NCBI GenBank assembly: GCA_029561455.1
Contig: JAKQIY010000069.1
Coordinates: 1 to 34,127, forward strand
Length of the DNA: 34,127 bases
Direction of reading: 5' to 3'
Source of the DNA: a bacterium
Lineage (GTDB): Bacteria > Zhuqueibacterota > Zhuqueibacteria > Residuimicrobiales > Krinioviventaceae
In this document: piece after piece, positions 8,247 to 34,127 of the stretch
Position numbering within the stretch: the stretch's first letter is position 1
Layout: each line of letters begins with the position of its first letter
Notes under the pieces: generated by a model
Database searches by the model: none
What the model was told of the DNA's origin: nothing
What the model saw: only the letters and a program-made list of their open reading frames with translations
Position numbers and translations under genes: made by a program

Positions 8247-8569
8247 TTTGCTCGCAACAGGGTTGATCAGAAAGAATTATCCGCAGATGACACAGATTTA
8301 CACAGATGAATACTCTGTTCGGACTGGGGATGTTCCCCAGTCTGCACTATAATGCAGGGCATCTTGCCCTGCCGAGCCGCAGGCCCGATCTGCGCTATCT
8401 GGCGTTAGGCATACTAGACTGATCTTTAACAGTTGAAAAAATTAAGTTATAAAAAAAACAATAGGATATACCACTCCATTTTTTTCTTGGCACCACAAAT
8501 GTTCGCTCGCGCCGGGGTTGCACCCCGGTGCGTCAACGAGTAGGATGGGGCCTCTGCCCCATCATTTCC

Positions 8570-19959: not shown

Positions 19960-20001
19960 CTTTTTTCTCACTTTAAACAAAAGTTCTTAGGGGTTAACTT
20001 G

Positions 20002-20040
20002 TACGCTCTGGATTTCACAATTCAGGGCGTATTTAGTTTG
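20002..20040 (+). terminator. Likely terminator after mscL
   Basis: TACGCTCTGGA (20002-20012) pairs with TTCAGGGCGTA (20021-20031) over 11 positions including two G-T pairs, with an 8-base loop, followed by TTTAGTTTG. Confidence 0.55.
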
Positions 20041-20114
20041 GGGAATTGTGTAGCCCGCGCCGGGGTTCTTCGGTAAATTACCGGTAGTTCTTATGTTTAA
20101 AAGTCCCTTGAAAA

Positions 20115-20184
20115 GACGGATCCAAATTACTAATATTATTCTGTAATAAACAATACATAGTAATAAAAAAAGAAAGGATCCGTC
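20115..20184 (+). promoter_or_regulatory. Inverted repeat burying the transposase ribosome site
   Basis: GACGGATCC (20115-20123) is the exact complement of GGATCCGTC (20176-20184), which abuts the transposase ATG at 20185. The Shine-Dalgarno AAAGGA overlaps the right arm. Paired RNA would hide the ribosome site, the kind of brake known in other insertion sequences. The 52-base loop is AT-rich. Confidence 0.5.
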
Positions 20185-21255
20185 ATGCGTAATATAAGAA
20201 AACTCGATTTTTCAAACAACAATTTCTACATTGGCATTGATGTACACAAGAAGAGTTGGTGTGTAACCCTAAATAGCCAACAAATGAACCTTGAGACATT
20301 TTCGATGAATCCATCGCCTTCTGAATTAAAAAAGTATCTCAACAAAAATTATCCTAACGGAAAATATTTTAGTGTATACGAAGCCGGTTTTTGCGGCTTC
20401 TGGATTCATCGCGAATTATGCAAATTGGGAATTAACAACCTGGTTATAAATCCTGCCGACGTACCGACCACCGACAAGGAGAAACGTTATAAAACCGATA
20501 GCCGGGATTCACATAAATTAAGCCGGGAACTGGCCAATCACTGTTTACGAGCGATATATATTCCGGATGAATTTGCAGAATCTATTCGCGGTTTATGCCG
20601 GTTACGGGAACGGATCGTCAGCCATCAGACTCGCCTGAAGAACAGGATCAAGTCCTTCCTGACAGTGAAAGGGAAAGATTTTACACCCAATTCGGAATGT
20701 AAACATTGGTCCGCAAATTTTGTGAGAACTCTTAAAGAGATGACCTTTTCTCAGGAAATTGATAAACAGACCTTCCAGTTCCATCTGAAGGAATTAGAAG
20801 AAACCCGGCAACAAGTATTAGAGGTTACCCGCCAATTACGCAGTCATACCAAAACCGACACCTGTCAGGCAATCATAAAATACTTGTTAACAGTCCCCGG
20901 AGTAGGATTTATTGTTGCCATAACTTTCTATACGGAAATTATAGATATCAGCCGCTTTAAAAATAATGACCATCTGGCTTCATTTGTTGATTTTACGCCA
21001 GGAACGCACAGTTCCGGAGAAAAGAATCGAACAACCGGCCTGACACCCAGACGGAATAGATACTTACGCTATCTTTTAATAGAAGCAGCATGGGTTGCTA
21101 TACGTAAAGACCCGGCATTATTTATACAGTACTCAACGTTGCTGAAACGTATGCCAAAACAGAACGCAATCATACGGATCGCCAAGAAAATGGTAAGTCG
21201 AATGCGTAATGTATGGATTAAAGAAAGGCCTTATTTATTAGGCATTCTCGAATAG
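20185..21255 (+). CDS. IS110-family transposase (DEDD type)
   Basis: A 356-aa recombinase. The RuvC-like DEDD residues are visible as D19 (GIDVHKKS), E66 (YEAGFCGF), D105 and D108 (KTDSRDSHKL). The C-terminal Tnp domain has VPGVGF (237-242) and the serine motif HSSGEKNRTTG, with S277 the likely nucleophile, followed by RRNRYLRYLLIEAAW. All catalytic positions are intact, so the element may be active. IS110 transposases use an element-encoded RNA to choose target and donor; that RNA would lie in the adjacent non-coding tracts. The start is fixed by AAAGGA 6 bases upstream. Confidence 0.93.
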   Translation: MRNIRKLDFSNNNFYIGIDVHKKSWCVTLNSQQMNLETFSMNPSPSELKKYLNKNYPNGKYFSVYEAGFCGFWIHRELCKLGINNLVINPADVPTTDKEKRYKTDSRDSHKLSRELANHCLRAIYIPDEFAESIRGLCRLRERIVSHQTRLKNRIKSFLTVKGKDFTPNSECKHWSANFVRTLKEMTFSQEIDKQTFQFHLKELEETRQQVLEVTRQLRSHTKTDTCQAIIKYLLTVPGVGFIVAITFYTEIIDISRFKNNDHLASFVDFTPGTHSSGEKNRTTGLTPRRNRYLRYLLIEAAWVAIRKDPALFIQYSTLLKRMPKQNAIIRIAKKMVSRMRNVWIKERPYLLGILE

Positions 21256-21483
21256 TACACATAACAGTCAAAGTGATTTTTTGCGCAATTGCCGACCGTT
21301 TTTTGCCCCTTGCACAAGGCAATTATATTGTGATTAACGCCTGTGTTTCTTGTAGTTTACGGCGGCATATTAATAACGCATTGAAAAGAGAATGCAGCAT
21401 CGCATGTACGTTTTATAACATGGATTGGCTGTTTATAACAGGTTAAAGAAAATCACTAATTTGTGACTGTAGGTACTAATGTT

Positions 21484-21611
21484 ATTTTTGGTCTCTGCAA
21501 TAAAAAAATACTCGCCTTTTCCGAGACTGTCAAGGCTACCCTCCGGCGGAAAAGAACCGGCCTTGACAGTCTCGGAATGGCGAGTGAAAAACTTTTGCAG
21601 AGACCAAAAAT
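21484..21611. repeat. 128-bp fold-back element (possible MITE-like or structured RNA)
   Basis: Three nested complementary blocks: 21484-21499 with 21596-21611 (16 bp, outer sequence ATTTTTGGTCTCTGCA), 21510-21516 with 21579-21585 (ACTCGCC/GGCGAGT), and 21519-21536 with 21560-21577 (18 bp, TTCCGAGACTGTCAAGGC). The paired length is 41 bp, with small asymmetric internal loops and a 23-base apical loop. No obvious target-site duplication flanks it. No credible protein is encoded. Confidence 0.85.
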
Positions 21612-21689
21612 GGAAGGGAGTTTTTTGTTTATAAAAAAAATGCGGATCTGCCATATTTTAGCTAAAAAAACACTTGACTTTTAACATAA

Positions 21690-22015
21690 CAGGGGCAACC
21701 CTTGCGGTTGCCCGTCTCCGGTTACGGGCAGGGGCGAGCCCTGCCCCTACAGATCGCGCCGGATATTTATCCGGCATGATCAATATATTCATTAATTGGC
21801 GCAAAACATTGTCCTGCCTTGTCCATGCCGTCCACAAACCATACGCCGGATGACAATCCTTTTTTCATGTTGTTTTATTTGCTTTGTATAATGCAGGACA
21901 ACATGTCCTGCCCTATTTTACGTCCTGGAATTGATTTCCAGGGCGAGCTATCCCCTTTGCTTTTATTTCCAATCTCCTGATTGGAACCGGCTAGCTCAAA
22001 ATCTCTGATTTTCTG
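21690..22015. repeat. Cluster of palindromic repeats before the ABC transporter
   Basis: Hairpins include GGGCAACC-cttgc-GGTTGCCC (21693-21713), GGGCAGGG-gcgag-CCCTGCCC (21726-21746), GCAGGACA-aca-TGTCCTGC (21893-21911), a CCTGGAA...TTCCAGG stem near 21925, TCCAATC-tcct-GATTGGA near 21969 and AAAATC-tct-GATTTT near 21999. Together with 21256-21483 (the probable IS right-hand non-coding tract), the region 21256-22100 has no convincing gene. Confidence 0.7.
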
Positions 22016-22035
22016 CTTGCCAAAAATATTATTTA

Positions 22036-22062
22036 TTGTAAATTGTCCTACATCTATATAAC
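22036..22062 (+). promoter_or_regulatory. Possible promoter of the ABC transporter genes
   Basis: TTGTAA (22036-22041) and TATAAC (22057-22062) are 15 bases apart; alternatively TTATTG (22033-22038) with an 18-base spacer. It lies about 40 bases before the ATG. Weak evidence. Confidence 0.3.
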
Positions 22063-22100
22063 TCATGAAAAACACATTCTTCCCTGATGAGGGCAATTAA

Positions 22101-24230: not shown

Positions 24231-24690
24231 TTATCCGCAGATATCGCAGATGACGATTTTTCGTAAGGGCAACCCTCGCGGTTGCCCAAAGCTCACGCCG
24301 GGATTCACTCCCGGTTGGTAACCGTAGGGGCATCCCTCGCGGATGCCCTGCGTACAATAATACAGGGCATGTTGCCCTGCCGGGCCGCAGGCCCGACCTG
24401 CAAGCTGTTTCGCCACTAACGTGGCTTGTTATGGGGAAACGGGGTGGTTATAAACATTTCACCCCTGACGGGGTTTTGGCAAGCTCGCGCCGGGATTCAC
24501 ATCCCGTTGCGGGAAAAAATGGTTCAATTCTGTAATACATAGGTTTTCGTAGGGGCGATGCATTCGTTCCAGATGTTCTAAAAATTACACCTGTTTCTCT
24601 GACAGAATGCATCGCCCATTTAAAAACATATCCGGTTTTCCGGCAAGAGCGTAGTATTCAACAGGTAATTTTTAAATGGGCGAAACATCC
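24231..24690. repeat. Second palindromic repeat cluster, with alternative hairpins
   Basis: Gene-free. It contains TTATCCGCAGATATCGCAGATGACG, here split as a repeat of the tract near 8278; GGGCAACC-ctcgc-GGTTGCCC (24267-24287); GGGCATCC-ctcgc-GGATGCCC (24328-24348); an AGGGCatgttGCCCT hairpin near 24364; and a 24400-24490 stretch that repeats the order of modules found at 8980-9065 (GTTTCGCCACTAACGTGGC, then ACCCCTGACGGGGT at 24461-24474). The tract 24549-24690 has GGGCGATGCATTC pairing with GAATGCATCGCCC, and CGCCCATTTAAAAA pairing with TTTTTAAATGGGCG near 24670; the two stems share bases and exclude each other. Confidence 0.8.
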
Positions 24691-33639: not shown

Positions 33640-34127
33640 ATCTAATAACTTTAATATACCACCTGTTTCCTCTGCGTTCTCTGCGCCTCTGCGTTTAAAA
33701 ACTCTTCTTGTTCCCAATCTCCAGAGACTGTGATAAAAGGAATTGTGTTTATTAATTAGAGATTTGGAGCCTGATTAAAAATGATTTTTGTAGGGGCGAA
33801 GCATTTGTTCCAGAATTTTTCAAATAGTTAAAATTTATTTGTAAAAATGCTTCGCCCCTACCAGATTTTTATGATAACTTGCATAGTAAAAGTGATAACG
33901 ATAATTTTCCAAAGAGTATGCATTTCCTTCGTTCCAAACTCCGGAGACTGTGTGAAAACAAAAAAAATTACTATAAAAGTGGAGTGCATCGCCTTTATGC
34001 GATGCGTTGGGCCGAAGGTCCAAATATTATCTGAATTTTGAAAACCTTACTGATTATTACAGATATAATTAATGTTAGGTAACTATATATTTTTATTCAA
34101 ACAATAATCGTTTCGAGGCCGCCTGCG
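33640..34127. repeat. Gene-free end region with hairpin repeats
   Basis: Contains a CTCTGCG tract (33669-33695, CCTCTGCGTTCTCTGCGCCT and on), a 17-bp stem GTAGGGGCGAAGCATTT (33790-33806) with AAATGCTTCGCCCCTAC (33845-33861), GCATCGC-ctttat-GCGATGC (33986-34005), and two copies of a CTCC-(A/G)GAGACTGTG motif near 33718 and 33939. Any promoter for the minus-strand cluster should lie near 33650-33720; none was convincing. Short open frames here look spurious. Confidence 0.6.

What the first reader, a model, noticed from the sequence alone, without database searches (positions are those of the whole stretch)
21484..21611. Giant 41-bp fold-back element next to the IS110 copy
Three nested stems form a 128-bp near-perfect hairpin. 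It is far longer than a terminator and has no gene. It could be a MITE, a structured RNA or a recombination substrate.
Basis: seen in the sequence. Interest (0 to 1): 0.6.

Follow-up and report, generated by a model that had tools for sequence, protein, structure and literature searches.

The report
Long hairpin inside an RNA-guided transposon
The long hairpin is real, but it is not a separate element beside the transposon: it is part of the right end of an IS1111-type mobile element, just after the RNA that guides that element to its target.

Summary
The hairpin at 21484-21611 is real: 17+7+18 Watson-Crick pairs, no G-U, and 0 of 200 shuffles fold as well. The IS belongs to the IS1111 group and spans about 20086-21690. 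It has subterminal inverted repeats at 20091-20105 and 21676-21689, an intact transposase (20185-21255), a bridge/seek RNA after the transposase (about 21264-21470), then the hairpin, then the right end. The RNA carries guides matching the target (TTGCCCCT against AGGGGCAA; CTTGTAG against the REP left half TTGTAG) and the element's own end (ATAACAGG). Guide-flank matching over 18 related elements beats all 20,000 permutations. A second, partial right end, including part of the hairpin, sits at another REP-like palindrome on contig C81. No other copy was found in this genome or in 81 others of the phylum, so a dispersed MITE is not supported. Related elements have unrelated structures, or none, in the same gap; a Bacteroidota subset has a covarying double hairpin there. 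Best reading: an accessory terminal stem-loop of the transposase-bridge-RNA transcript. Its function is inferred, not shown.

The parts
20084..20087 (+). GTAG: left target half; AG (20086-20087) is the probable core dinucleotide repeated at the right end
   Evidence: Intact REP-like palindromes in the window and genome read GTAG|GGGC
20091..20105 (+). Left subterminal inverted repeat TTATGTTTAAAAGTC
   Evidence: Local alignment with the reverse complement of the right end, 14 identities and one 1-nt gap; same motif at the left ends of relatives
20185..21255 (+). IS110-family (IS1111-group) transposase, 356 aa, intact
   Evidence: PF01548 and PF02371; NF033542 IS110 family RNA-guided transposase, 210 bits, cutoff 140
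21264..21470 (+). Predicted bridge/seek RNA with long closing helix
   Evidence: Fold; guide complementarity; position 3' of tnp as in relatives
21303..21310 (+). Target guide TTGCCCCT, complementary to right target AGGGGCAA
21349..21355 (+). Target guide CTTGTAG, same sense as the REP left half (T)TGTAG
   Evidence: seen by inspection, not scored statistically
21435..21442 (+). Donor guide ATAACAGG, identical to the right end of the IS
21484..21611 (+). The 128-nt hairpin (fold-back)
21501..21509 (+). 5' side of the 9x9 A-rich internal loop (3' side 21586-21594)
21676..21689 (-). Right subterminal inverted repeat; the motif CTTGACTTTTAACATAAC runs 21673-21690
   Evidence: same motif in C81, G056 and G001
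21691..21751 (+). Right half of the REP-like target palindrome (AGGGGCAACCCTTGCGGTTGCCC...GCCCCTACA)

Best explanation
The fold-back is an integral part of the right non-coding end of an IS1111-group insertion sequence (about 20086-21690), lying between its bridge/seek RNA and its right subterminal repeat. Shown: its location inside the IS, the IS ends, RNA guides matching target and donor, and a second right end carrying part of the hairpin. Inferred: in the excised circle, TTGACT of the right end and TATGTT of the left end come together at 17 bp and drive one transcript through tnp, bridge RNA and hairpin. The hairpin, starting 13 nt after the closing helix of the bridge RNA, then acts on that transcript as a terminal stem-loop. 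The most likely role is a cleavage and protection point (RNase III type, in the way long stems bound rRNAs) that gives the guide RNA a stable 3' end; next most likely is a barrier that keeps transcripts from running through the recombination end. My probability for 'part of the IS right end' is about 0.95; for the terminal stem-loop role about 0.4.
For: Ends: inverted repeats 20091-20105 / 21676-21689. Guides: own-flank complementarity averages 7.4 nt against 5.0 for other elements' flanks, and the observed sum is reached by 0 of 20,000 permutations (18 elements); donor-guide match likewise 0 of 20,000. The right-end motif lies 3' of the hairpin, so the hairpin is inside. C81 right end: 120 nt identical, ending exactly where target matching ends (AGGGGCAA), at a different REP-like palindrome. 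Junction promoter spacing of 17. In the spacer between bridge RNA and right end, 9 of 18 elements have a structure with z of -3 or lower on at least one strand, and 8 Bacteroidota-type sequences share a covarying double hairpin there (10 of 34 pairs with compensatory change, 0 of 500 shuffles). Literature: IS1111-family IS keep the guide RNA downstream of tnp, form a junction promoter, and the short guide RNA derives from a longer form (PMC11187229, passages and section 6).
Against: No RNA data. The 51%-identical IS of G056 has the same right-end motif but no significant structure in the spacer (z +0.6 / -1.2), and L075 and L077 have spacers of only 44-45 nt, so the hairpin is not required by the family. 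All 42 pairs are Watson-Crick with no G-U, which also suits selection or repair at the DNA level. The C81 copy covers only 33 of the 128 hairpin bases. Nesting depth of the fold does not set the window apart (4th of 35), although its energy does (-85.2, next -66.9).
Confidence: 0.6

Rival explanations
1. An independent fold-back transposon or MITE that inserted into the right end of this IS and now travels with it.
For: The IS spacer is variable among relatives (44-211 nt), so it tolerates insertions. Outer flanks read TA on the left and TG on the right if the element is taken to start one base inside the outer stem, one mutation from a TA duplication (sequence).
Against: No duplication of 3-9 bp at the outer ends. 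No second copy in the genome: arm pattern with up to 2 mismatches gives only the two arms and one unrelated place; 22 one-mismatch outer-arm places carry no second hairpin. None in 81 other phylum genomes, phages or plasmids, or exact-pattern scans of genome and viral contigs.
Confidence: 0.12
2. A transcription barrier or insulator: the hairpin stops or slows polymerase entering from outside or leaving the IS, protecting tnp, guide RNA and recombination ends.
For: Position between guide RNA and right end; a palindrome, so it works in both directions; the IS lies in REP-like sequence between genes.
Against: No U-tract after the stem on either strand, so it is not an intrinsic terminator of the usual kind.
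Confidence: 0.25
3. An antisense promoter element: the hairpin carries the best sigma-70-like site of the region (TTGACA-17-TATTTT, minus strand, 21533-21505), which would make an RNA antisense to the guide RNA and tnp end, as a brake on transposition.
For: 10 of 12 consensus matches, the highest in 20000-22100; the -10 lies in the internal loop and is present on one arm only. IS110-family ISPpu9 is controlled by small RNAs encoded on both sides of tnp (PMC8450116, section 16).
Against: 9 sites found against 5.8 expected in shuffles, so one site is weak evidence; promoters of this phylum are not known to me.
Confidence: 0.12
4. A passive quasi-palindrome made by replication template switching, kept only because the IS tolerates it.
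For: Perfect Watson-Crick arms; found in only one IS lineage; absent from relatives.
Against: The 9x9 internal loop is A-rich on both strands, which an inverted copy would not give; retained at both right ends in the genome.
Confidence: 0.2

Closest known systems
IS1111-group insertion sequences with downstream seekRNA (ISEc11 and others; PMC11187229)
   Same: DEDD transposase, subterminal inverted repeats, non-coding region with guide RNA downstream of tnp, short guides matching both target strands, junction promoter
   Different: A 128-nt hairpin between guide RNA and right end; the passages and sections I read do not mention such a structure
IS110-group bridge RNA elements (IS621; PMC11208160)
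   Same: RNA guides for target and donor; insertion at REP elements; core dinucleotide
   Different: Guide RNA upstream of tnp, short subterminal repeats, short right end
ISPpu9 with Ssr9 (PMC8450116)
   Same: REP target, AG repeat at the junctions, and an optional small-RNA unit downstream of tnp that some copies lack
   Different: Ssr9 is an sRNA with its own promoter and occurs as orphans flanked by A and B boxes; a nested left-end box before this hairpin is not significant (159 of 1000 shuffles as good)
Bacteroidota IS1111 double-hairpin module found here (L038, L042-L045, L064, L082, L083)
   Same: Same place, between guide RNA and right end; outer stem, A-rich internal loop, inner stem
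   Different: No sequence similarity noted; shorter stems; conserved across genera, unlike the window hairpin

Membership tests
IS1111 group of the IS110 family (the host IS) | IS110-family DEDD transposase with PF01548 and PF02371 | tested here: met
IS1111 group of the IS110 family (the host IS) | Subterminal inverted repeats of about 7-17 bp | tested here: met
   15 aligned columns with one gap; lengths from PMC11208160 passages
IS1111 group of the IS110 family (the host IS) | Long non-coding region downstream of tnp, short left end | tested here: met
   about 97 nt left, about 435 nt right
IS1111 group of the IS110 family (the host IS) | Guide RNA in that region with complementarity to target and donor | tested here: met
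   18 elements, 0 of 20,000 permutations; 4 of 18 have a longest target match of only 5 nt
IS1111 group of the IS110 family (the host IS) | Terminal extensions of 7 bp left and 3 bp right beyond the repeats | tested here: inconclusive
   GTAGTTC and CAG fit 7 and 3 if GTAG is counted in the IS, but GTAG is also the REP left half
IS1111 group of the IS110 family (the host IS) | Circular intermediate and transposition | not testable with these tools
   needs an experiment or reads
MITE / fold-back element | Several dispersed copies | tested here: not met
   the only second copy is within the same IS right end
MITE / fold-back element | Target-site duplication at its ends | tested here: not met
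   no 3-9 bp repeat at the outer ends; the repeats listed there lie at or inside the stems
Intrinsic terminator | G+C-rich stem followed directly by a T run | tested here: not met
   one search does not list it
Known Rfam family | Match at gathering score | tested here: not met
   none in the window; below-threshold hits to microRNA models are generic hairpin hits

The most novel reading that the evidence does not exclude
Some IS1111-type elements carry a second structured RNA domain between the guide RNA and the right end. It differs by lineage (a 128-nt hairpin here, a conserved covarying double hairpin in Bacteroidota) and matures, stabilises or controls the guide RNA, so that the natural RNA of these recombinases is larger than the bridge/seek RNA now described.
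Probability: 0.3. Interest if true: 0.6.

Novelty: new variant of a known kind. Interest (0 to 1): 0.36.

Why it matters
IS110/IS1111 recombinases are programmable by their RNA and are being developed as tools. How the guide RNA of IS1111 types is made from the transposase transcript is not settled in what I read; an accessory stem-loop at its 3' side, and a covarying module in the same place in Bacteroidota elements, are direct candidates for that step and easy to delete and test. It also settles the finding: the large fold-back is not a free element.

Tried and rejected
Free MITE or fold-back: rejected for lack of dispersed copies and duplication. Upstream bridge RNA (IS110-type left end): first considered from the structured sequence at 19980-20085, rejected because the inverted repeat and guides place the left end near 20086 and the guide RNA after tnp. 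Intrinsic terminator: rejected. Nested mini-element starting near 21469 with its own left end, on the ISPpu9/ssr9 pattern: the alignment is no better than shuffles (159 of 1000). In the same call two right-end-like stretches (21262 and 21501) scored at 7 of 300 shuffles each, not corrected for several tests; I do not build on them. Empty site in the sister genome G001: its mscL neighbourhood is not syntenic, so no empty site. Assembly chimera of an inverted read: unlikely, because the two arms differ in the 9x9 loop and the C81 end matches one arm. Scans of genome contigs and viral contigs for the inner stem and of viral contigs for the right end found nothing. Plasmid and phage searches: none for phages; for plasmids one 31-nt chance-level match at E 0.5; none in plasmids for the Bacteroidota module. 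Nesting depth as a measure of the hairpin did not discriminate, and the single-hairpin count missed the window hairpin because small helices form in its apical loop.

Rows dropped: of the 52 loci plus L091 and the window, 18 elements entered (right end recognised by eye, near-duplicates left out). One search examined 46; a right end was found in 37 (2 duplicates, 35 used) and not in 9. The right ends were chosen by similarity to the inverted left end, which I judged by eye.

Full report
OBSERVATION. The structure is real. 21484-21611 folds into stems of 17, 7 and 18 pairs, 42 of 42 Watson-Crick with no G-U, with a 9x9 A-rich internal loop, a 2x1 mismatch and a 23-nt apical loop. The DNA fold is -49.4 kcal/mol against a shuffled mean of -16.3 (sd 2.9), 0 of 200 shuffles as good. 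Two of its three stems are the only 100% complementary pairs among the 14 inverted repeats (arms of 17 nt or more, within 300 nt) listed for the window. RNA energy alone does not make it unique: in 1698 windows of 170 nt, G+C-richer stretches near 8481 and 24261 fold more strongly. No ORF of 80 aa or more lies in it.

WHERE IT LIES. The neighbouring ORF 20185-21255 is an IS110-family transposase (PF01548, PF02371; NF033542 'IS110 family RNA-guided transposase', 210 bits). I fetched 51 relatives from genome contigs, one from viral contigs and two from genomes of the same class (one of these, L090, reads the same as L041, a candidate division KSB1 MAG, so the window's organism is in the same order as a KSB1 bacterium). 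Most of their left ends begin shortly before tnp with TATGTTTG / TTATGTTTAAAAG-like motifs and their long non-coding region is after tnp. In the window the left motif TTATGTTTAAAAGTC (20091-20105) has its inverted copy at 21676-21689 (14 identities, one 1-nt gap), that is, 65 nt beyond the hairpin. The same right-end motif occurs in C81 of this genome and in genomes G001 and G056, in G056 at the right place behind a transposase of 51% identity. So the hairpin is inside the IS.

GUIDE RNA. Between tnp and the hairpin, 21264-21470 folds with a long closing helix and two loop domains. It contains TTGCCCCT, complementary to the right flank AGGGGCAA; CTTGTAG, in the same sense as the left half of intact REPs of this genome ((T)TGTAGGGGCAA, 6 places; 5 of them printed); and ATAACAGG, identical to the right end. 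I scored this over 18 elements: the longest exact complement of each RNA to its own flank averages 7.4 nt against 5.0 for the flanks of the others, and no permutation out of 20,000 reached the observed sum; the donor match gives the same result. Against: 4 of 18 elements (L042, L053, L061, L038) have a target match of only 5 nt, no better than background; L038 and L039 have truncated or masked flanks. The elements are partly related, so the permutation is not a strict probability. Examples across unrelated targets: G056 AAACCT/AGGTTT, L040 GATCCCGG/CCGGGATC, L049, L064, L069, L070, L077.

TARGET. The right flank is a REP-like palindrome in both places (C27: AGGGGCAACCCTTGCGGTTGCCC...; C81: AGGGGCAAAGCATCTGTTCCAG...AGATGCTTTGCCCCT). 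Intact relatives read GTAGGGGC, for example in the window at 33790-33861 and 24549-24617. The left flank of the IS is ...CCGGTAG. This fits insertion at GTAG|GGGC with AG as the shared core, so the IS is about 20086-21690. Whether GTAG is counted to the IS or the target depends on convention; PMC11187229 gives 7-bp and 3-bp extensions. With the core counted once, the circle junction puts TTGACT and TATGTT 17 bp apart; a junction promoter is described for these families (PMC11187229; PMC11208160).

COPIES. In its own genome there is one complete hairpin and the C81 right end, which shares 120 nt (window 21579-21698), covering 33 of 128 hairpin bases before the contig stops. tnp has one copy in the assembly, so C81 is either a collapsed second IS or a truncated one; I cannot tell. 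The inner stem with up to 2 mismatches occurs 3 times: the two arms and one unrelated place in C26 (the place read). The outer 12-mer with one mismatch occurs at 22 further places against 9 for the backward control; none of the 22 carries a second hairpin. In 82 genomes of the phylum, 3 match at E 0.01 or better; the two others are short matches of 32 and 22 nt outside any hairpin.

RELATIVES' SPACERS. Between guide RNA and right end, 18 elements have 44-211 nt. z is -3 or lower on at least one strand in 9 of 18: the window (-10.7) and L038, L042, L044, L045, L046, L049, L061, L064. L061 has a hairpin of about 80 nt. G056, L039, L070, L075, L077 and the remaining four have nothing at that level. 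In 35 elements the window's last 210 nt before the right end have the lowest energy (-85.2; next L061, -66.9), although nesting depth ranks only 4th. Eight Bacteroidota-type sequences share a double hairpin: 34 pairs, 10 with changes on both sides, 96.3% of cells paired, 0 of 500 shuffles as high; sliding the partner by 1-3 columns drops it to 49% or less. One of the five measures (further pair types) is not above the shuffles (445 of 500), and the structure was derived from the same alignment, which favours it. No Rfam family matches at gathering score.

MECHANISM. Shown: position, ends, guides, two right ends. Inferred: one transcript from the junction promoter runs through tnp, guide RNA and hairpin. 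In ISEc11 the short guide RNA derives from a longer form and no other promoter was seen (PMC11187229). A long stem 13 nt after the closing helix would suit cleavage and protection of the guide RNA's 3' side, or a barrier before the recombination end. The lack of a U-tract speaks against an ordinary terminator. A minus-strand sigma-70-like site inside the hairpin leaves an antisense role open. ISPpu9 gives a precedent for an optional RNA unit downstream of tnp (PMC8450116 section 16), but the box arrangement of that element is not found here. The comparison with rRNA-processing stems and RNase III is from general knowledge, not from a call.

LITERATURE. Read: PMC11187229 abstract, passages, sections 6 and 13; PMC11208160 passages; PMC8450116 passages and section 16; PMC11208158 in search listings only. 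Searches for IS1111 with hairpin and right end and with stem-loop and non-coding region returned no paper; the library lacks most subscription journals and supplementary files were not read.

VERDICT. A real and unusually long hairpin, explained as part of an IS1111-group right end. The element is a new member of a known kind; the hairpin makes it a variant. The part that deserves follow-up is the class of structures after the guide RNA, above all the covarying Bacteroidota module.

Noticed in passing
L042 4262-4395, L064 4247-4376, L038 3798-3930 and five others (alignment A2): A conserved double hairpin between guide RNA and right end of Bacteroidota IS1111-type elements, with compensatory changes at 10 of 34 pairs and no Rfam match.
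   Followed up: partly
window 33790-33861 and 24549-24617: REP-like palindromes starting GTAGGGGC; members of this repeat class are the target of the IS.
   Followed up: partly
window 21259-21266: CATAACAG, identical to the right end of the IS, also occurs directly after the tnp stop; unexplained, could be chance.
   Followed up: no
Bacteroidota relatives (L042-L065), IS ends: The left end TATGTTTG and right end TTTG would form a Bacteroides-type promoter (TTTG / TAnnTTTG, consensus recalled, not from a call) across the circle junction, whereas the window element forms TTGACT-17-TATGTT; the junction promoter seems fitted to the host group.
   Followed up: no
G001 contigs C133 (start) and C166 (end): L036, L034: Right ends of a related IS at two contig ends, with no tnp found in that assembly at E 1e-60: probably a multicopy IS lost from the assembly.
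   Followed up: no
G000 C4:127644-127811 (L030): A 79% identical remnant of the left end and tnp start of this IS, without the rest.
   Followed up: no
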